64,000 nt of DNA from Lepraria neglecta. Its lineage: Eukaryota; Ascomycota; Lecanoromycetes; Lecanorales; Stereocaulaceae. The notes under the pieces are model-generated. The model made no database searches. It worked only from the letters and a program-made list of their open reading frames with translations, and was not told the DNA's origin. Location of the stretch: NCBI GenBank assembly GCA_033220425.1, contig CM065649.1, forward strand, positions 3,286,001 to 3,350,000. Reading direction: 5' to 3'. Shown here in pieces: positions 11,383-63,672 of the stretch. The first letter of the stretch is position 1. Each line of letters starts with the position of its first letter. A program made the translations under genes and the position numbers.

Positions 11383-11756
11383 AAGAACCTCATAAGCAAA
11401 AACACTACTATTTGCAAAATACTCCTCCCCCACCGCCACCACCACTATGCCCCTATAACTACCGCTAGAAGGCTGGCAAGTAGCTCTCCTCTATAGCCTT
11501 ATACTACAGATATAATAGTATATAGGCCCGCAGGGCTACGCTATCCTCAAAGCCTATACTAAAAAATTCAAGAAGACCAAAGTAGACCGCCGTACTTAGA
11601 TACGCGAGGGCGCGCACATGTATATACTACGCTAGGGCGGGGCGGGGCAAGGCTACTCGCTTAGCCAGCTCGGCGGCGCCCTTAAAGCGACCGTATCAGG
11701 GCGGCGACGACAGCAGCGCTGAGTCTTACCCGCGGTGGGAGAGCTCGGGGCAACGA
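11383..11756 (+). mobile_element. Mutator-like (MULE) transposase N-terminal relic
   Basis: From the ATG at about 11444 a frame with several stops reads GPQGYAILKAYTKKFKKTK and later ALKATVSGRRRQQR. This resembles the N-terminal FAR1-type DNA-binding region of fungal Mutator-like transposases: a Pro-rich leader, a Gln-Gly-Tyr-Ala block, a Lys-rich run, an Arg-rich strand, then a His-Asn-His-Glu end. The Cys ligands are not preserved and at least five stops interrupt the frame, so it is long dead. The gypsy element is inserted at its right end, about where the final His-rich motif would fall, and no clear continuation was found beyond 18495. The call is by resemblance only. Confidence 0.4.
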
Positions 11757-12269
11757 TGTTACGATCAGGAAACATGATCAGGGATGCGCTCAAGGAGCGT
11801 AGCGCCCGTCATGGTTCGAGTCGACGAATCGGTGTCCGACTCGGACAGACCCTGAAGGCTTGGCATGTTAAGCGATGAGCGCAGTGGTCGCAATAAGCGC
11901 GGTGCGATCAGTGCGATCAGTGCGATCAAGAAGGCTTGGCATGTTAAGCGATGAGCGCAGTGGTCGCAATGAGCGCGGTGCGATCAGTGCGACCAGTGCG
12001 ATCAGGAATGCTTAGTATGGATTTCGTATGTCTATATATGCGGAGCACTACTCACCACTTGGAGCATCGTGCTCAACTTGCTATTCAATTGTTTACTACA
12101 TACGATAGATCTCTTAGGCTAGGCACTAAACATATATCATCTAATCATATACCAGACCCGCTTAGCATCACTTGAAGCCTGCTTCACCCTCTTACTCTAT
12201 TATACCTCTATCCCTATTAAGAATCAATCTATATATAACGGACCACCGCACGCAACGTGGTTCGTAACA
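11757..12269 (+). repeat. 5' LTR of the gypsy element
   Basis: The repeat is 513 bp and pairs with 17978-18490. It contains a 76-bp tandem duplication (units starting at 11855 and 11931) rich in GCGATCAGTGCGATCA-like motifs; the same duplication is in the 3' LTR, so it pre-dates insertion. The outer half is little altered while the inner half is more AT-shifted. Confidence 0.92.
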
Positions 12270-15200
12270 CTTTGAGTACCCTTAAGGATAAGTGCTATAC
12301 CAAGAGACCCTAGGGTACCTACTCTAAGCTCCTTAGGAGGAGGAAGCGGATAGAGACACCCTACTATTAACGAAGGACTCAGCAGGTATATTAAGATAGC
12401 CTAGCCCGACTTATACTATAGAGAGAGGGATAAGCTTAAGGGATAGCTATCCTAGGTATTATTATATCTGAAGTTCCAAGGGGACCTTATACCTATATAG
12501 AGATATCCTACCTTCGCTATTACTTACTTACGTAGAAAAGCCTAAAAGTAGGTTAATCCGTTCCTAAAGAAGTATATAGAAGATAACGACGAGGACGGTA
12601 AGATTAAGTAGTAGATAGAAAGTATAGCAATATTTAGGCTTGAAATCCGCCGTATATTCGGACTATCTAATAAAGTTAATATAGTAATACGAACTATCTA
12701 GTACTTAACTTAGAAGAAGTCTATATCGGAGTATTCGACTTAGTTCTAGCAGTATATAGTAAAAACTAACTAGGACGATAACGTATTAATAACTATATAC
12801 CGAAGAGGTCTAAAGGATAACGTTAAGGACAAACTTATAAGGATAGGAATTATTCTTAATACCCTCGATAAACTAACTAAAGAAGTAATCGAAATTAATA
12901 ATAAGTTATTTGAAAGGACTATAGAAAAAAGGTATAACGGAGGAGTCGGCGGGATAGGACGCTCGAGCTTTTTTACTAAATCGAAGAGCTATCGCCTAGG
13001 TTATAAAGAACGCGACCCTTATAGACTAGTACTAATAGAATTAGATTTCACGGAGAAGAAAGGTAAATAGGCCTTTAGAGGGCTAGCTAGGGGCAAGAAG
13101 CAGTAAGGGGGCAGGAAGAAAATACTCACGTATTATAGCTATAGTAAACCGGGCTACTTTACTAGAGACTATAAGTCGAAAAATATAGTATATCGATAGT
13201 AGCTGAATATACTAGAAAAAGTACAGGACCAGGATAGTAATTCTAGTAGAATCTTACTAATATAGAACGAAGTCTATAGTTAGTAATAAGAAGAGGAATC
13301 TAACTTAGGAGATAAGGAGTTCTCCGACGACAGCTTTACGAATAAAGCTAATACTTAGATAGGGAAGCTATATATTAGAGATAGTAGTAACGCCTAGGGA
13401 AAGTAATCTAAGTAGGATTAGGATAAGGAAGAATCGGAATAGGAGGTTATAATCAAAAGAAAAGGACTACCGATAATACCCGAACCTAGATCTACTATAT
13501 CTAAGGAGAAGAGAGAATACTCAGAGGAAGAAAGACTAAAAGAATTCTAGAACGATTTTAGTATCTTAGACTTCAGGTATAACTACTATTACCCTAAATA
13601 TAAGGAAGTCTACTAGAGATAGTATATAGAAAATAGTTACGACTATTATAGAATTAACCGTAGAAAAGAACTAGGAGTTCTAATAAAATCATCCTGTAGT
13701 AATTACTAGTACTATAAGTATAAGGACGATAGATACCCTTAGTACTTAGCAAGAAAGCGATAACTAAGCTACTTTCTATATAAGAAAGACGAGGAAGAAG
13801 TATACTACCGAAACCAAATAAGACGTTAGAGTTTAGAAGTAAACCAGTGCCACCTATAATAGTAGTATATATATTTATACGATAACTGCAAGAAATACAA
13901 GTTCGAGAAGTAGCTTGTAGGATTCCTCCCCGTACAGGGAAAAGAGTAATCCCTCGTAGTAGGGGTAGCCATAAGGAGATTAAGATATTAACCCCCAAAT
14001 AATATCTATATTCCGCGCAATATAATATATATATAAAGATACCGGTAATCGTTAATAGATAGCGGACTATTATAATAATAGATTCTAGAGCTACCAGAAA
14101 CTTTATCTCGCGAGACTTAGTACAAATAACTAGAATACTAACTCGAAAGAAGTTATAGTAGTATAATCTTTAGATAGCTAATAGGTTAATACTATTAATA
14201 GGAAAGGTAGACGAAGAGATACTTTCGTTACCTATTATAATTTAGCGCTACTATAAGGAGATTACCTTTAATATTATTAGGATAGCTATCTATTATATAA
14301 TTTTAGGGATACCTTAGTTAAAGAAGTATAATCTAATAATTAATTAGGCTCGAGAAGTACTCAAGATAGATTAATCCGGCAATATCACTAGGATTATACC
14401 TATGTATTAGCAGCGTTTAATAGTAGATAAGAAGTCGAACCGAAGACCGGTCGAGGTATATATTACCTTAGCTTCGCATAAGGACGGTACTAAAAGGTAG
14501 TTCGACTCTATAGTTACTAGCGAAGGTTAGCGGGATAATAAAGTAAGAGTTAGAGGAGGAACTAATATACCCTCTATCCCTCGAGAGTATAGTAGGTAGG
14601 TATACTTATTCGAGGAAGAGACGAATATAGAAGTATTACCTAGGTACTAGCTATAGGATTATAAGATCGAACTCGAACCTAGTAAATAGCCGATATTTAG
14701 ACCTATTTACGTATTATTAGAAAAGGAACTTAAAGTACTTTATAGGTATATTAACGAGAACCTTAAAAAGGGATTTATTCGAGAATCCAAATTACTAGTA
14801 GGTTACCTAATCCTCTTTATACTAAAGAAGGACGGAAGCCTATAACTATACGTTAACTATCGAAAGTTGAACGATATTATAATCAAGAATAGATACCCTT
14901 TACCTAATATCGGCGAGCTATAGGACCGGCTCGAGAAAGTAAAGATATTTACTAAACTAGATCTTAGAGGCGTATATAACCTAATTCGGATAAAAGAAGG
15001 CGAGGAATAGAAAACTACCTTCCGAACAAGATATAGCTACTATAAGTATCTAGTAATACCGTTTAGACTTACTAACGTACTAGTAACCTGCTAAGTACTT
15101 ATTAGTAATATTATATAAGTATACTTAGTTTAAATAGCGATAGCGTACCTGAATAATATACTAATTTATTCTAAGAATAAGAAAGAATATATTATATATA

Positions 15201-17977
15201 TATAGGATATCCTCGGATACCTATTATAAGCGAAACTTCTTCTTAAATCAGAAAAGTGCGAATTCTATAGGGAATTAGTAGAGTTTCTAGAATTTATAGT
15301 TAGTATAAAAGGTACTAGTATAAGCCCGGAGAAGATTAAGGCTATAGCTAAATAGCCTATACTACAGGACGTTAAAGTAGTATAAAGCTTCTTAGGATTT
15401 ACTAACTTTAATAGGAAGTTTATCGAGGGCTACTCTAAGAAAGTACTACTACTAATAGATATTACAAAGAAAGATATCGGGTTTATATAGGGAAAAGACT
15501 AATAGAAATTATTCGATATATTAAAGAAAGTATATACAGATCTACTAGTACTCTATACCTTTCAAATAAATAAGCTAGCTTATATCGAAACGGACGTATC
15601 GGATCTTATAATAGAAGTATACTTATACTAGATAAAAGACTAAAAATAGTATCTAGTTACCTACTATTCAAGGAAGATATTAGTAGTAGAATAGAACTAT
15701 AATATATACGACAAGGAGTTACTTACCGTAGTATATATACTTAGAACTAGCGAGTATACGTAGAAAGCTACTTAGACTTAACTATCTTTACGGACTATAA
15801 GAACCTTCTTAACTTTATAATAATAAAGGAGTTAAATAGACAATAGGTCCGATAGTTAGAACTACTAGGTTAATATAAGTTCAAGATAACCTATACCCTA
15901 GGGAAGGATAATAGTCGAGTAGACGCCCTTAGTAGGCGATTAGACTATATAGAAGAAAAGAATATTATAGAACGACTAATCCTAAAGAAAGAAGCCGATA
16001 GATTATTAGTACTATACTAGGTATTAGCTATAACCCTTTATATAATAGGACCTAATATAACTAACAGGATCGTAAAGGCCTACGAAGATAATATATTCGT
16101 AACAATCCTAAGAAAGGATTAGCCGGATACGGTATTACTTAAATACCGGGGAAAGACTTATCTACCTGAGTAATATATAGAGGAAGTAGTTAGGGATTAC
16201 TACAACGACCTATTATAAGGTTATCCGGGAGTCGCTAAAATAATAGAGCTCCTAGAAAGGGAATATACGGCGCTAAAGCTTTGAGCGCGCGTTAAATAAT
16301 ATATTAAAGAATATATTCAATACTAGCAGAATAAGTCTATATAATATACCAAATATGGATAAATATAATTTATACTAGTTCTAGAATCACTATAGGACGA
16401 TATTATAATAGACTTTATAGTTAAGTTACTACTATCTAAGGATCTAGCTACTTAGGATACCTTTGATTCAATTATAGTTATTATAGATAAACTAACGAAG
16501 TATACTATTATAGTACCTTTCAAGGAAACCTATAAAGTAGATCAGCTAGTATTTATATTATTAGACAGGCTAATAAGGGATTATAGTATACTAAAGTTAA
16601 TTATATTAGATAGAGATAAGCTCTTTATATCTAATTACTAGAAGACGCTTATCGGAGTAATTAGAACGAAACTAAGGATATTAATAGTATACTATCCGTA
16701 GATAGATAGATAAATAGAATATATAAATTAGATAATAGAAGCGTACCTTAGGTACTACGTCAACTAGAAATAGGATAACTAGGTATTACTACTTCTAATA
16801 GTATAACTAGTATATAATAATAAGATATTAGATATAATAAAGCTAATACTATTCTTTACTAATTATAGAAAGAATATAAATACTTTTCTATAACCTAGGG
16901 AGGGACCTAATATAGAAAAAGCCTTAGTAAAGGTAGACGAGCTAAAGAATTTATATAAAGATATATAAAGATCTATCGAAAGCTTAAATTCTAAACTAAA
17001 GGAATATATTAATAAGAAAAGAAAGAATATTCCTTAGCTAAAGAAGGGGGATAAAGTATACCTCCTAATAAAAAATATAAGAACGACGAGACTAAGTAAG
17101 AAACTAGATTATATTAAGGTTAGACTATTCTTAATTAAATAGGTAAAAGGACCTATTAACTATAAACTCGAGCTTCTACCTGATACTAAGGTATATCTAG
17201 TATTCTATATCTTACTCTTAGAGCTAGCAGACTCTAATATACCCTTATAGGAAATATTTTATTATAATATTAAAGAAGAAACGGAGTTCGAGGTTAAGAG
17301 GATTCTAAATCAGGTCGATTAGAAGTATCTAGTTAAATAGAAAGGGTACGATAATACCGAAAACACCTAGGAACCTCTTAGGAACCTCCGGAACTGCTAG
17401 GACCTTCTGTAGGAGTTCCGGGAATAATCGGGAAGGAGGACCAATTGGTTCCGTCTAGGAAGCCAAACTGTTCAGACAAGATATTGAATATCTAGCTATT
17501 AGGAACGCTTAGGATAGACCACTAGTCTTCTTCTAACTCCTTAATATTCTATATCTCTCGGTCTATAATCTTCCGCTTTTTATCTTCGAGTTATTTATAC
17601 TACGTCTAAAGGCGTATCAGTATAGCCTAAAGACGTATAGACTCTTCCGTATTACGAGCCAACTCTTCGCGCGTAGTTTTTAACTATAACTACGCTTCCT
17701 TTCGTTCTATCTTGATATAATATATCTTAAGGGGCGATACCATAAGGTCGTATTTTCTACCGCTGCCTATACAGTTAGAACACCTATCGGAACCTGTACC
17801 TATTAAGTACTACTTGCCGCTGGCAACACATCGGGAACACGGCCGCATCACGACTTCGGTTAGCTTACTAGCCAACACCGTTCGGCGGACGGTCGGTTTA
17901 TCTAAACGTTTAGTATATCGGGGTAGTATAAAGGATAGATAGTTTCTCGGGACGAGAAATCTAGGAGAGGGAGCTAA

Positions 17978-18490
17978 TATTATAATCAGGAAATATAATC
18001 AGGGATACGCTCAAGGAGCATAGCGCCCGTTATGGTTCGAGTCGACGAATTAGTGTCCGACTCGGACAGACCCTGAAGGCTTGGCATGTTAAGCGATGAG
18101 CGCAGTAGTCGTAATAAGCGCGGTGCGATCAGTGCGATCAGTGCGATCAAGAAGGCTTGGCATGTTAAGCGATGAGCGCAGTGGTCGCAATAAGCGCGGT
18201 GCGATCAGTACGACCAGTGCGATCAGGAATGCTTGGCATGGATTTCGTATGTCTATATATGCGGAGCACTACTCACCACTTGGAGCATCGTGCTCAACTT
18301 GCTATTCAATTATTTACTACATACGATAGATCTCTTAGGCTAGGCACTGAACATATATCATCTGATCATATACCAGACCCGCTTAGCATCACTTGAAGCC
18401 TGCTTCACCCTCTTGCTCTATTGTACCTCTATCCCCATTGAGAATCAATCCACACATAACGGACCACCGCACACAACGTGGTTCGTAACA
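17978..18490 (+). repeat. 3' LTR of the gypsy element
   Basis: The repeat is 513 bp, the same length as the 5' LTR, with the same internal 76-bp duplication. It is followed directly by the AACGA target duplication. Here the inner (left) end is the AT-shifted side and the outer end is well preserved. Short ORFs in this repeat are not genes. Confidence 0.92.
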
Positions 18491-56442: not shown

Positions 56443-57757
56443 ATGTCTCGAGATGCCCATGGTTCCCACCTTAACACGCCAATCCCCTACAAGCTCCATA
56501 TAGACGAAGAGCTTCTCGCCAATACGAAGCAAAAGCTGCAACTTGCGCGTTACCCGGAAGAGCAAACAGATATTAGAGACGATGACTGGAATCAAGGCGC
56601 CAAGGTTAAGGTAGTCAAGAGGTTGGCCGACTACTGGAAAGATGACTATGACTGGAGGGCAGAGGAGGTGTTTGTTCCCCACATCACCCCAGCCAAAGAC
56701 CAGTCGTTGCTAACCTCGCTTCCTCCTACAGGCAAAGATAAACCAAGAATTCGAACAATACACAGTTAAAGTCGACATACCAGACTACGGCCCCCAAGTC
56801 CTGCACTACGTCCACGCCCGTTCCTCCTCCCCAACCGCAATCCCCCTAATCTTCGTCCACGGCTGGCCCGGTTCCTTCCTCGAAACACGCAAAATCCTCA
56901 AACCCCTTACATCCCCTTCCAATCCCAAAGACCAAGCATTTCACCTCATTGTCCCCTCCCTCCCCGGCTACGGTCCCGGCCCCGCGCCTCAGAAATCTGG
57001 CTTCGGTCCCGTCACGTCCGCTAAGGCATTCAAGCTTCTCATGGTTGATGTGCTAGGCTATGATAAGTTCGTCACCCAAGGGGGCGACTGGGGCGCCTTC
57101 GTAACGCGATCGCTAACTATGCAATACCCCCAACACGTGCGCGCATGCCACACGAATTTCGTGCCCTGTGGGCCGCCCGCTTGGTATAAAGCCCCTCTTA
57201 CTCTCGGAAGATTAGTATTGAATTCATGGCTATATACAGCAAGGGAGAAGCAAGGGTTGGAGATGATGCAGTACTACTTGCGCGAGCAGAACGGGTATCT
57301 AAAGCAGCAGACTACACGGCCGCAGAGTCTAGGATTCGGGCTAGGTGATAGCCCCATCGGACTGCTGGGTTGGTTGGTGGAGAAATATCATGAGTGGATG
57401 GATGTTGCGCACTACACTCAGCCCGACGACGAGGTCCTAGCATTCGTAATGATGCACTGGATGACCGGCGCCACGCCCGCGTTACGGTTCTACAAAGCTG
57501 CGTTTCAAGAAAAGGGCCCGAGTTGTGTCGAGAATGCGTTTACGACGTATTTAGGGACACCGTTGGGGTTTAGTGCATTTCCGAGAGAGATTGCGAGTCC
57601 GCCAACGGATTGGATAAGGCCCGTTTGTAATTTGCAGTGGCATCGGGAACATGATGAGGGTGGGCACTTTCCTAGTGTGGAGTGTCCGGAGAAGCTGGTG
57701 GGGGATTTGAGGGAGTGGTTTGGGGGTGAGGTTGTTAGGAAGGCTATAGAAGGGTGA
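56443..57757 (+). CDS. Epoxide hydrolase (alpha/beta-hydrolase with EHN domain)
   Basis: Exons 56443-56667 and 56732-57757 join in phase 0 (64-bp intron, GTGTTT...CCTACAG) to 416 residues. The N-terminal epoxide hydrolase domain has TPIPYKLHIDEELLANTKQK and YWKDDYDWRAEE. The hydrolase core has the oxyanion motif FVHGWPGSF (about 118), the nucleophile Asp in TQGGDWGAF (about 193) and the general-base His in GGHFPSVE (about 386). These are the catalytic signatures of microsomal-type epoxide hydrolases, which open epoxides to diols. Length and blocks are normal, so it is probably active, in detoxification or secondary metabolism. Confidence 0.9.
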
Positions 57758-60752: not shown

Positions 60753-62136
60753 CTAATAAACAGTGATCTCGGAAGGTGCAATTCCTGAAAAACATGACTT
60801 CTTGAACCAACGTACCAGTCCCACACGCGTGTATGCATCTGAAGGCTTGTCCTTTTTGACAAGCGCTAATCCCATAACCATTCTACCTGACTCCTCGTCA
60901 TCCTGAGGCTCGATTTGTCGATTACAAATGTGATAAGGTCTCTCGATTATCGACCAATACCATTCGTTGCGTACGTTTATGCAATAAACGACTTGACCGT
61001 GCTGGAGCTCCGTCAGAATGTCAGCGTACATCACGCCTATCGTTTCTCCAGCAGGATCCAAAAGCAATCTCCATCCTTCGTCATAGTCTGCATTCTCTCG
61101 AGGAGGGTTCGTATTGAGTGTGGCGGCCCTCAAACAACCAGTCAATCTTATCCAGCCATCGGATACTACTCCTGTCTGATCTTCGCTGACAGTGGTCACA
61201 GAAATGTTCCTGACTTGGAAGGTCCCAAAGTCGTATTCTGCAGACCGAGAATCTTGATCAGATCCTCCACTAGCTAACATCTGGCTCTCATAGGAAATAC
61301 GACCATCGATCGATGCCCATGACCAGGTTGGGGCTCGGTAGTGGAAAGGCCTGCGTGGCATGAATGCTTCAAGAAGCGAATTTGGTGGAGATCGCACCGT
61401 CCGCCACAGCAGAGCTGACGGCAGAGTTCTTTCCCAAAGCCCTGCAGCATACACATCATGGATTCTGTGGGATTTTTGAGCCAAACCGGACAACACTGGC
61501 AACTTGTCTGTTTCACACGTAAGGAAACGCTTAGAATAATCCTTAGCTAGATCAAACTCGTCTCCCGTAATACTATGGTTTCACTCTCTCTATTTAACTC
61601 CGCAACCTCATTCGCGAGCAGACTTGGCGGTGGATCTTCAATCTTCATCTGCACCCAAGGAAGTTCACTTGAAGCTTTGGAGGTCTTGAACTCCCAGAGT
61701 AGTAAGCTATCAGTGGAATAAAGACTATTAGTTGACAGAGCTCGTCCTTGCAGCATCCAGGCTCGCGTGCGTAATGATCCAGTGCCCCATGCTCGATTAC
61801 AGTCTTGCGGACTCTTTTCAAAGAAACAGATCCTCTGCGACCCTATACTGAGATCGAGGGGAGGGTTGCGGTCTATTGAGGTGGGTGCTTTAGAGCCTAC
61901 GCGACAACCTCCTTCGCTGCTTTCCGAGCTTGAGGCAGCAAGAGTGCACAGTGAGTGAGCGTAGATCTGTCCCATCACAGCTACTTCCCTCTCCCAGTCC
62001 TCGCGCGAATCTTGGGCAATACATAATGAGTCTATCCAAAGGTAACGCACGTCTAAGCTAGGGATGATCTGCACAGCATCTTTGAATGATAAAGGAAGTT
62101 CGCCAAATGGGACCCGCTTGAGCTGCTGTCCTAGGT

Positions 62137-62279
62137 TGTTGCAATCCGTTGCTTGATTGCTTTCTATACGATTCTAGAAGCCTGTTGCTAGCCGTTCTTT
62201 GTCTGTTTTGGGCATATATGGGGCCCTGGGGGCCCCCATTAGCTAGACATCCTTCCTAGCCTATTGCCACATTGCAACA
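62137..62279. repeat. 5' LTR of the TRIM
   Basis: 143 bp, starting TGTTGCAATCC and ending CATTGCAACA. It contains a GGGCCCTGGGGGCCCCC palindromic stretch. The copy at 63044-63186 appears identical. Confidence 0.9.
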
Positions 62280-62291
62280 GGTTATGAGCCC
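62280..62291 (+). promoter_or_regulatory. Probable primer binding site for initiator tRNA-Met half
   Basis: GGTTATGAGCCC directly after the 5' LTR is complementary to the anticodon stem-loop of fungal initiator tRNA-Met (GGGCTCATAACC). Priming from a half tRNA of this kind is known in Ty1/copia-type elements. This suggests a copia-derived TRIM. The tRNA sequence is recalled, not searched. Confidence 0.55.
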
Positions 62292-62429
62292 GGACAGCGC
62301 CTATTTCGCTGTACCTTTATGGGGAAGGTTCCCTCGCAGTACGGTGTCTGCGTTGTATACGTTCAGCCCTCGGATTTGCTTACCAATCCAGAACTCAGTA
62401 GAGGTATCATGGAGGAATTCGGCTCCCAG

Positions 62430-62960
62430 CCAGTTATTTCTGGGAGTATTTCGGTCCGGATACAGGGGAGATAAATTCTCAGGCCTACGACGACCACTCA
62501 AGCCCTATATGGGCATAGCTCCTCAATCAGTTATATCTGGGAGCATTTCAGTCCGGATACAGGGGAGATAAATTCTCAGGCCTACGACGACTACTCAAGC
62601 CCTATATGGGCATAGCTCCTCAATCAGTTATATCTGGGAGTATTTCAGTCTGGATACAGGGGAGATAAATTCTCAGGCCTACGACGACTACTCAAGCCCT
62701 ATACGGGCATAGCTCCTCAATCAGTTATTTCTGGGAGTATTTCGGTCCGGATACAGGGGAGATAAATTCTCAGGCCTACGACGACTACTCAAGCCCTATA
62801 CGGGCACAGCTCCTCAATCAGTTATTTCTGGGAGTATTGCGGTCCGGATACAGGGGAGACACATGGATTCTCAGGCCTACGACGACTACTTAAGCCCTAC
62901 ACGGTTCTGTACGCACGGCTCCGGATACAGGGGAGACATATGGATTCTCAGGACTATCAA
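62430..62960. repeat. 97-bp tandem repeat inside the TRIM
   Basis: The anchor ACAGGGGAGA occurs at 62462, 62559, 62656, 62753 and 62850, exactly 97 bases apart, with a shorter final unit at 62927. Units contain CTCCTCAATCAGTTAT and TTCTCAGGCCTACGACGAC. They vary by few bases, so the array probably expanded before transposition. Confidence 0.85.
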
Positions 62961-63043
62961 CGACCTCTCGGACGCCGACAAATGTTTTAGGTCCAGGATT
63001 GAGGGGAGCGCTAGCAGGGATATGTTTCTAGCATCGAGGGGAG

Positions 63044-63186
63044 TGTTGCAATCCGTTGCTTGATTGCTTTCTATACGATTCTAGAAGCCTGTTGCTAGCC
63101 GTTCTTTGTCTGTTTTGGGCATATATGGGGCCCTGGGGGCCCCCATTAGCTAGACATCCTTCCTAGCCTATTGCCACATTGCAACA
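63044..63186. repeat. 3' LTR of the TRIM
   Basis: 143 bp, same start and end as the 5' LTR, followed by the TAGGT target duplication copy at 63187-63191. Confidence 0.9.
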
Positions 63187-63672
63187 TAGGTTTGCCGTGG
63201 TAGTTGTCACTGGGCGTTTCGAGAGTGGATCCCAGCAGTGGCTCAGCGTCATACATATTTGCTCCTCCTGGGTCACACCAGTCCCAGCGACAAGGACTAC
63301 ATCCCATGACTCGCCCAAAGCATCCAAGTCTAGGAGTCTGGTCGGCCGGAAAGGTTTAGCATCTGCAATGCAATTCAGATGACTCCCGGAGTCAATTCAT
63401 CGACATTTGTATCCAATTTAGCTCGTGGAAGTAGCTGATCCAGTATGAGGTCAGCACCATGCACTTCACCCCATCGCAATGACAGGTAGTGTACCGAATG
63501 AAGGCGGCACATAATAGAAGAATACATGATTCATATCATCGACCCCAATGCAAAGGTCAAAGCCTTGTTCAGGATTAATATTGGCTCTTTCCGACTGTAT
63601 GGGTTGGCAAGCACGAATTGCCGGAGAAAGAAGGTCATCTGCATAAGCCGATTCAATAATGCCGGCCGGCAA

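What the first reader, a model, noticed from the sequence alone, without database searches (positions are those of the whole stretch)
62137..63186. Young TRIM with apparently identical LTRs, 97-bp array and a half-tRNA-type primer site, inside a HET gene
The sequence shows 143-bp repeats with TGTTGCAA/TTGCAACA ends, a TAGGT target duplication, a purine tract, a site matching the anticodon stem of initiator tRNA-Met, and about 5.5 units of a 97-bp repeat. With one TAGGT copy, the HET reading frame is continuous across the site (TTTANL then GQQLKR). Fungal TRIMs with half-tRNA priming and internal arrays are rarely described. Identical LTRs suggest the HET-E break may still vary between strains.
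Basis: partly seen in the sequence, partly recalled or inferred. Interest (0 to 1): 0.78.

Follow-up and report, generated by a model that had tools for sequence, protein, structure and literature searches.

The report
Multicopy mini-retrotransposon inside a decayed gene
A 1,050-base gene-less retrotransposon, one of a family with many copies in a lichen fungus, has jumped into a fungal self-recognition gene that also looks broken elsewhere; it is a clear and well-preserved case of a known kind of mobile element.

Summary
Window 62137-63186 is a TRIM (terminal-repeat retrotransposon in miniature): identical 143-bp LTRs, TAGGT on both sides, a primer site complementary over 14 nt to the anticodon arm of an initiator-like tRNA-Met gene of the same genome, a purine tract and a 97-bp array. 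A nearby gene identifies Lepraria neglecta, a lichen fungus. The LTR core occurs 157 times, the reversed pattern 0 times. Of 13 complete copies measured, 12 have perfect 5-bp target duplications, all different, and 8 have identical LTRs. A Copia family with 163-bp LTRs shares LTR ends, primer site and purine tract and is the likely mobiliser; 9 of its 10 listed RT places carry stops. The RIP index is negative in 12 of 13 TRIM copies and positive in two partner bodies. Corrections: anticodon-loop priming is the majority type in fungal Helenus TRIMs; identical 143-bp LTRs give only a loose age limit; the HET gene is also frame-shifted near 61575 and perhaps elsewhere. Strain variation was not testable. 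New member of a known kind.

The parts
62132..62136 (.). target site duplication, left copy (TAGGT)
62137..62279 (+). 5' LTR, 143 bp, TGTTGCAA...TTGCAACA
   Evidence: identical to the 3' LTR; LTR core pattern 157 times in the genome, control 0
62280..62293 (+). primer-binding site complementary to the anticodon arm of an initiator-like tRNA-Met
   Evidence: 14 of 14 nt against the tRNA gene L032:1538-1469 (-); LTR-PBS junction pattern at 44 places with up to 2 mismatches, control 2 (the 44 include other Copia families and a few likely chance hits)
62280..63043 (+). internal region, 764 bp; no Pfam match in the 7 stop-to-stop ORFs of 64-116 aa scanned
62431..62904 (+). 97-bp array, 4.8 copies
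   Evidence: unit spacing and number differ between copies
63034..63043 (+). polypurine tract TCGAGGGGAG, same 10 bases as in the 163-bp-LTR Copia copy L027
63044..63186 (+). 3' LTR, 143 bp
63187..63191 (.). target site duplication, right copy (TAGGT)
63187..63396 (-). upstream piece of the interrupted HET gene (...TTTANL)
61550..62131 (-). downstream piece of the HET domain (GQQLKR...), PF06985 profile positions 30-145 of 146, E 9.7e-22
60756..61580 (-). C-terminal piece of the HET gene, in another frame

Best explanation
62137-63186 is a Copia-type TRIM of Lepraria neglecta. Proposed cycle: the LTR drives a short RNA; partner proteins pack it; a tRNA-iMet fragment bound at 62280-62293 starts minus-strand DNA; the purine tract at 63034-63043 starts plus-strand DNA; the partner's integrase inserts the copy with a 5-bp staggered cut. 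The likely partner is a Copia of about 4.75 kb with 163-bp LTRs that share the TRIM's outer ends, PBS and PPT. The copy here landed inside the coding sequence of a HET-domain gene. Shown: anatomy, copies, target duplications, shared signals, uninterrupted site in relatives. Inferred: transcription, packaging, priming, integration in trans and the identity of the partner.
For: Identical LTRs and TAGGT duplication. 13 complete copies with the PBS and PPT in place, 12 with perfect and different TSDs. 157 LTR cores, control 0. PBS matches 14 nt of the genome's own initiator-like tRNA. No Pfam hit in 7 ORFs. Partner: L027 has two 163-bp LTRs with 1 difference, TCCTT on both sides, the same PPT decamer and a PBS with one change (GGTTATAAGCCCGG), and pol pieces RVT_2 and SH3_retrovirus over their cut-offs. 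TRIM and partner LTRs align over their first 38-39 bp, score 26, best of 1000 shuffles 19; the LTR of another Copia (L040) scores 9. LTR pairs spanning 4,753 bp flank RT matches on C1 and C8.
Against: No transcription or transposition data. The LTRs of TRIM and partner are alike only near the ends, and no shared internal sequence beyond PBS and PPT was noticed (by eye only). By coordinates 10 RT places lie on the same strand within about 3 kb of a 163-bp LTR listed; 9 carry stops and the tenth is partial, so no working partner was seen, though both lists are capped. L013, L016 and L018 begin with a 163-bp LTR and PBS but are not RIP-like downstream (15 of 15 slices negative); how much of that is element was not established. 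One of 20 fetched regions, L010, holds a copy with a damaged 5' LTR that my 125-bp filter dropped from the 13, and L026 has an imperfect duplication and 9 LTR differences.
Confidence: 0.93

Rival explanations
1. A Helenus-type TRIM (TRIMp3), driven by an RNA polymerase III promoter from a tRNA-like sequence in the LTR.
For: Fungal Helenus also have 5-bp duplications, a Copia link and iMet anticodon-loop PBSs (PMC10886601). The minus strand of the LTR has an A-box match with 1 mismatch, as good as the control tRNA's.
Against: No Rfam tRNA hit in 61900-63400 up to E 5; ARAGORN (bacterial code) finds none. Best B-box match on the LTR plus strand has 3 mismatches, the commonest value for shuffled LTRs (278 of 500), and 5 on the minus strand. 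The LTR holds a TATA-like CATATATGG. The control tRNA itself had 2 B-box mismatches, so the box scan is weak.
Confidence: 0.05
2. Not one amplified TRIM: each copy is an independent deletion derivative of the 163-bp-LTR Copia.
For: Shared LTR ends, PBS and PPT.
Against: Copies share the same internal region: 11 of 12 copies match the window copy in 72-80 of the first 80 and 58-59 of the last 60 internal bases (the twelfth, L026, has an LTR one base longer and was compared out of register).
Confidence: 0.03
3. A segmental or array artefact, not a transposon insertion.
For: None beyond the presence of tandem repeats.
Against: 12 different perfect 5-bp duplications at 12 loci; relatives uninterrupted at the site.
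Confidence: 0.01

Closest known systems
TRIMs of plants (PMC4717578, passages seen)
   Same: Short LTRs, no coding capacity; 11 of 289 subfamilies there have related larger Copia or Gypsy elements
   Different: Partner LTRs there are 79-98% identical to the TRIM LTRs; here likeness is limited to the ends. Fungal host, long internal arrays
Helenus TRIMs of fungi (PMC10886601, passages, section 3.6 read)
   Same: Anticodon-loop tRNA-iMet PBS, 5-bp TSD, Copia link
   Different: No tRNA-like sequence found in this LTR; the fungal Helenus named in the passages are mostly from rust fungi, this one is from an ascomycete
Ty5 and Drosophila copia (as named in PMC10886601)
   Same: Reverse transcription primed from a tRNA anticodon region
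   Different: Autonomous elements with coding genes (recalled)
Copia-related TRIMs of Cochliobolus heterostrophus (PMC4112212, passages) and the TRIM family of the lichen fungus Umbilicaria pustulata (PMC8773270, passages and table lines)
   Same: TRIMs annotated in ascomycete genomes, one of them a lichen fungus
   Different: No internal array or half-tRNA PBS mentioned in the passages I saw

Membership tests
TRIM | Two short LTRs flanking a short internal region, total under about 1 kb | tested here: met
   143-bp LTRs. The window copy is 1,050 bp, just over the 1,000 bp quoted in PMC10886601; 5 of the 13 copies are under 1 kb (708-989 bp), 6 are 1,050-1,339 bp and 2 are enlarged by inserts (L012, L020)
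TRIM | PBS next to the 5' LTR and PPT next to the 3' LTR | tested here: met
TRIM | No coding capacity | tested here: met
   0 Pfam families in 7 ORFs of 64-116 aa
TRIM | Multiple dispersed copies with target duplications | tested here: met
   12 of 13 complete copies
TRIM | Moved in trans by an autonomous LTR element | not testable with these tools
   Candidate partner only
Copia superfamily | Copia-type RVT_2 pol in the same element | tested here: not met
   The TRIM has no pol; only the candidate partner L027 does. It works like a Copia satellite and cannot itself be classified by pol
Helenus / TRIMp3 | tRNA-like sequence in the LTR | tested here: not met
   (the box scan is weak; one A-box-like match on the minus strand)
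Retrozyme | Hammerhead ribozyme in the LTR | tested here: not met
   no hammerhead match in 61900-63400 up to E 5
LARD | Large (over about 4 kb; recalled) non-coding LTR element | tested here: not met
   708-3712 bp in 13 copies

The most novel reading that the evidence does not exclude
A TRIM family that escapes the fungus's repeat-induced point mutation by being short and carrying unstable arrays, and so has kept near-perfect LTRs while its larger Copia partner was mutated to death; the TRIM now depends on another Copia lineage or is stranded.
Probability: 0.25. Interest if true: 0.5.

Novelty: new member of a known kind. Interest (0 to 1): 0.33.

Why it matters
It gives a documented TRIM family in a lichen-forming ascomycete with a candidate partner, a candidate primer tRNA gene of the same genome and many datable copies. 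It makes one question testable: whether short non-autonomous LTR elements survive RIP longer than the elements that move them. It also warns that a transposon in a gene need not be the thing that broke the gene.

Tried and rejected
Hammerhead or other Rfam RNA in the element: one hit, far below its cut-off (psbNH, E 1). LTR fold: z -0.98, unremarkable. Array as a row of spare purine tracts: AGGGGAG occurs 8 times in the window copy, but copies with 69-bp units hold fewer (4 in L009 and L023) and still have identical LTRs, so the extra ones are not essential. Arrays homogenised within an element: not supported; the nearest unit lies in the same element in 0.043 of cases, 0.084 in shuffles (36 units). 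L012 as a gene-capturing TRIM: left open; its 2.6-kb insert codes for a protein with 19 close relatives (76-93% identity), of which the 3 named are from Lepraria, and 2 weak ones, so it may be a nested repeat. NCBIfam gave nothing for it. No PDB match for the HET piece.

Not done because the genome machine stopped answering: reading further TRIM copies and full-length partners (19 regions), a search for HET paralogues or an empty site in this genome, and the 3 unread tRNA-motif places. Copy numbers are lower bounds (only best candidates scored); one search gives a whole count of 157 but listed only the first places.

Full report
What is there. The window lies on a 5,201,525-base contig (C4; length) of a 42.0-Mb genome. 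The stretch 56774-57754, translated, is 100% identical to a protein named OEA41_008050 of Lepraria neglecta on a contig of exactly 5,201,525 bases, so the organism is this lichen-forming fungus. At 62137-63186 two 143-bp LTRs are identical, flanked by TAGGT. A PBS follows the 5' LTR at once and a purine tract precedes the 3' LTR. The 97-bp array has 4.8 copies. Seven stop-to-stop ORFs of 64-116 aa in or partly in the element have no Pfam match.

Primer. GGTTATGAGCCCGG is complementary over 14 nt to a tRNA gene with a CAT anticodon at C2:547784, which scores 46.5 bits with RF00005 (cut-off 29). Its AUCGAAA T loop and strong anticodon stem are those of an initiator (recalled criteria). The gene has a two-base gap in the acceptor stem, ARAGORN with the bacterial code did not call it, and a looser pattern found no second copy. 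Of the 13 places with the core motif I read 10; 3 were not read. The exact primer gene is therefore not secured; the match to an initiator-type anticodon arm is.

Family. The LTR core pattern occurs 157 times (87 and 70 by strand, up to 3 mismatches), the reversed pattern 0 times. The 5' internal region drew 29 first-look candidates. Of the 20 regions fetched, 12 hold a complete copy; with the window copy that makes 13. L010, also fetched, has a damaged 5' LTR and was dropped by my 125-bp filter. 12 of 13 have a perfect 5-bp duplication, all 12 different (L026 has ACAAC/ACAAA). LTR differences within a copy: 0 in 8, 1 in 3, 2 in 1, 9 in 1. A solo LTR with ACTGC on both sides is seen in L015. 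Sizes run from 708 to 3,712 bp because array units differ in length (69, 97, 101, 105, 109, 110 bp) and number, with a second 74-bp array in some copies, and because L012 and L020 hold inserts. The window copy shares the 97-bp unit with L017, L022 and L025, and its LTR differs least from L025's (1 base).

Partner. Places with the same LTR-PBS junction led to a second family with 163-bp LTRs. L027 has both LTRs (1 difference in 163), TCCTT on both sides, the same purine decamer, a PBS with one base different, and Copia pol pieces: RVT_2 4.8e-20 (positions 12-113 of 244), SH3_retrovirus 8.2e-21; gag and Pol_BBD matches were below their cut-offs. LTR pairs spanning 4,753 bp flank RT matches on C1 and C8. 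TRIM and 163-bp LTRs align over the first 38-39 bases only (score 26; best of 1000 shuffles 19; the LTR of Copia L040 scores 9); TTAGCTAG in the middle and CATTGCAACA at the end are also shared. By coordinates, 10 RT places lie beside a 163-bp LTR listed; 9 carry in-frame stops, mostly TAG and TAA, and the tenth is partial.

RIP. The composite index is negative in 12 of 13 TRIM copies (-0.79 to -0.13; L026 +0.04), against -0.56 for 36 kb of the window. Partner body L024 (+0.47) and all five 1-kb slices of L028 (+0.84 to +1.51) are RIP-like, L027 is about neutral (-0.04), and the slices downstream of the PBS in L013, L016 and L018 are negative (15 of 15). Several TRIM copies, and the pooled TRIM internal regions (-0.13), lie above the background value, and in most copies at least half of the LTR differences from the window copy are transitions in CpA context (undirected count; L026 left out), so mild RIP of the TRIMs is not excluded. 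PMC9970103 (passages) suggests that MITEs in Zymoseptoria escape RIP by their short length.

Host gene. The piece at 61550-62131 (minus) matches HET, PF06985, positions 30-145, E 9.7e-22; the other three pieces scanned have no hit alone. A search with the frame pieces found 438 relatives, 120 listed. I compared 13; 12 hold both pieces around the insertion and in all 12 they abut with no gap; the thirteenth (P0008) lacks the upstream piece. But the frame also shifts near 61575, where the pieces are continuous in relatives and only 5 bases separate the two frames, too few for an intron. Further frame changes near 63655, 63475 and 63390 are less certain: the piece between the last two is short, matches relatives only weakly (E 0.04 or worse), and an intron there is not excluded. 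Unless these are assembly errors, the gene is broken for other reasons too, and whether the TRIM came first is unknown.

Age. Zero differences in 143 bases is compatible with up to 2.1% divergence (95%), about 1 My at 1e-8 or 10 My at 1e-9 per site and year, both rates assumed. 'Recent' is likely, 'still polymorphic' untested.

Known or new. PMC10886601 (section 3.6 read) states that the majority of fungal Helenus TRIMs have an anticodon-loop PBS, tRNA-iMet dominant, with 5-bp duplications and a Copia link. So the combination is established; what is particular here is the ascomycete lichen host, the lack of a detectable tRNA-like sequence in the LTR and the shifting internal arrays. I did not see this family described in the listings or in the passages read, in a library of open-licence papers only.

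Noticed in passing
window 11756-12269 and 17977-18490, with 12001-18000 between: A 514-bp direct repeat pair (94.7% identical, each holding a 76-bp array) flanks a 31-36% GC block with a strong RIP signature (index +1.37): probably a RIP-mutated LTR element.
   Followed up: partly
L020:889-2297: A second TRIM-like element, 1,409 bp, nested in a copy of this family: 109-bp LTRs (2 differences) with unusual ends CGTTAGCA...TGCTAAAG, CGGCT on both sides, and the same half-tRNA-iMet PBS.
   Followed up: partly
L040 (C4:1435000-1442500): A Copia copy with an uninterrupted 1,459-aa frame over the RT and 182-bp LTRs (1 difference) that have the same unusual CGTTAGCA...TGCTAAAG ends and AGATC on both sides: a likely partner of the nested second TRIM.
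   Followed up: partly
L012:1501-2878 (minus): The 3.7-kb TRIM copy holds a 2.6-kb insert coding for a protein of no known family, with 19 close relatives (the 3 named ones from Lepraria) and 2 weak ones.
   Followed up: partly
L030 around 1466-1574: An inverted repeat of a TGCTAAAG-type LTR end around a tRNA-like T arm and acceptor sequence, joined to the PBS motif; perhaps an aberrant reverse-transcription product.
   Followed up: no
C4:3350759-3350791, minus strand, just beyond the window: Another LTR core of the same TRIM family 1.6 kb from this insertion, in the opposite orientation.
   Followed up: no
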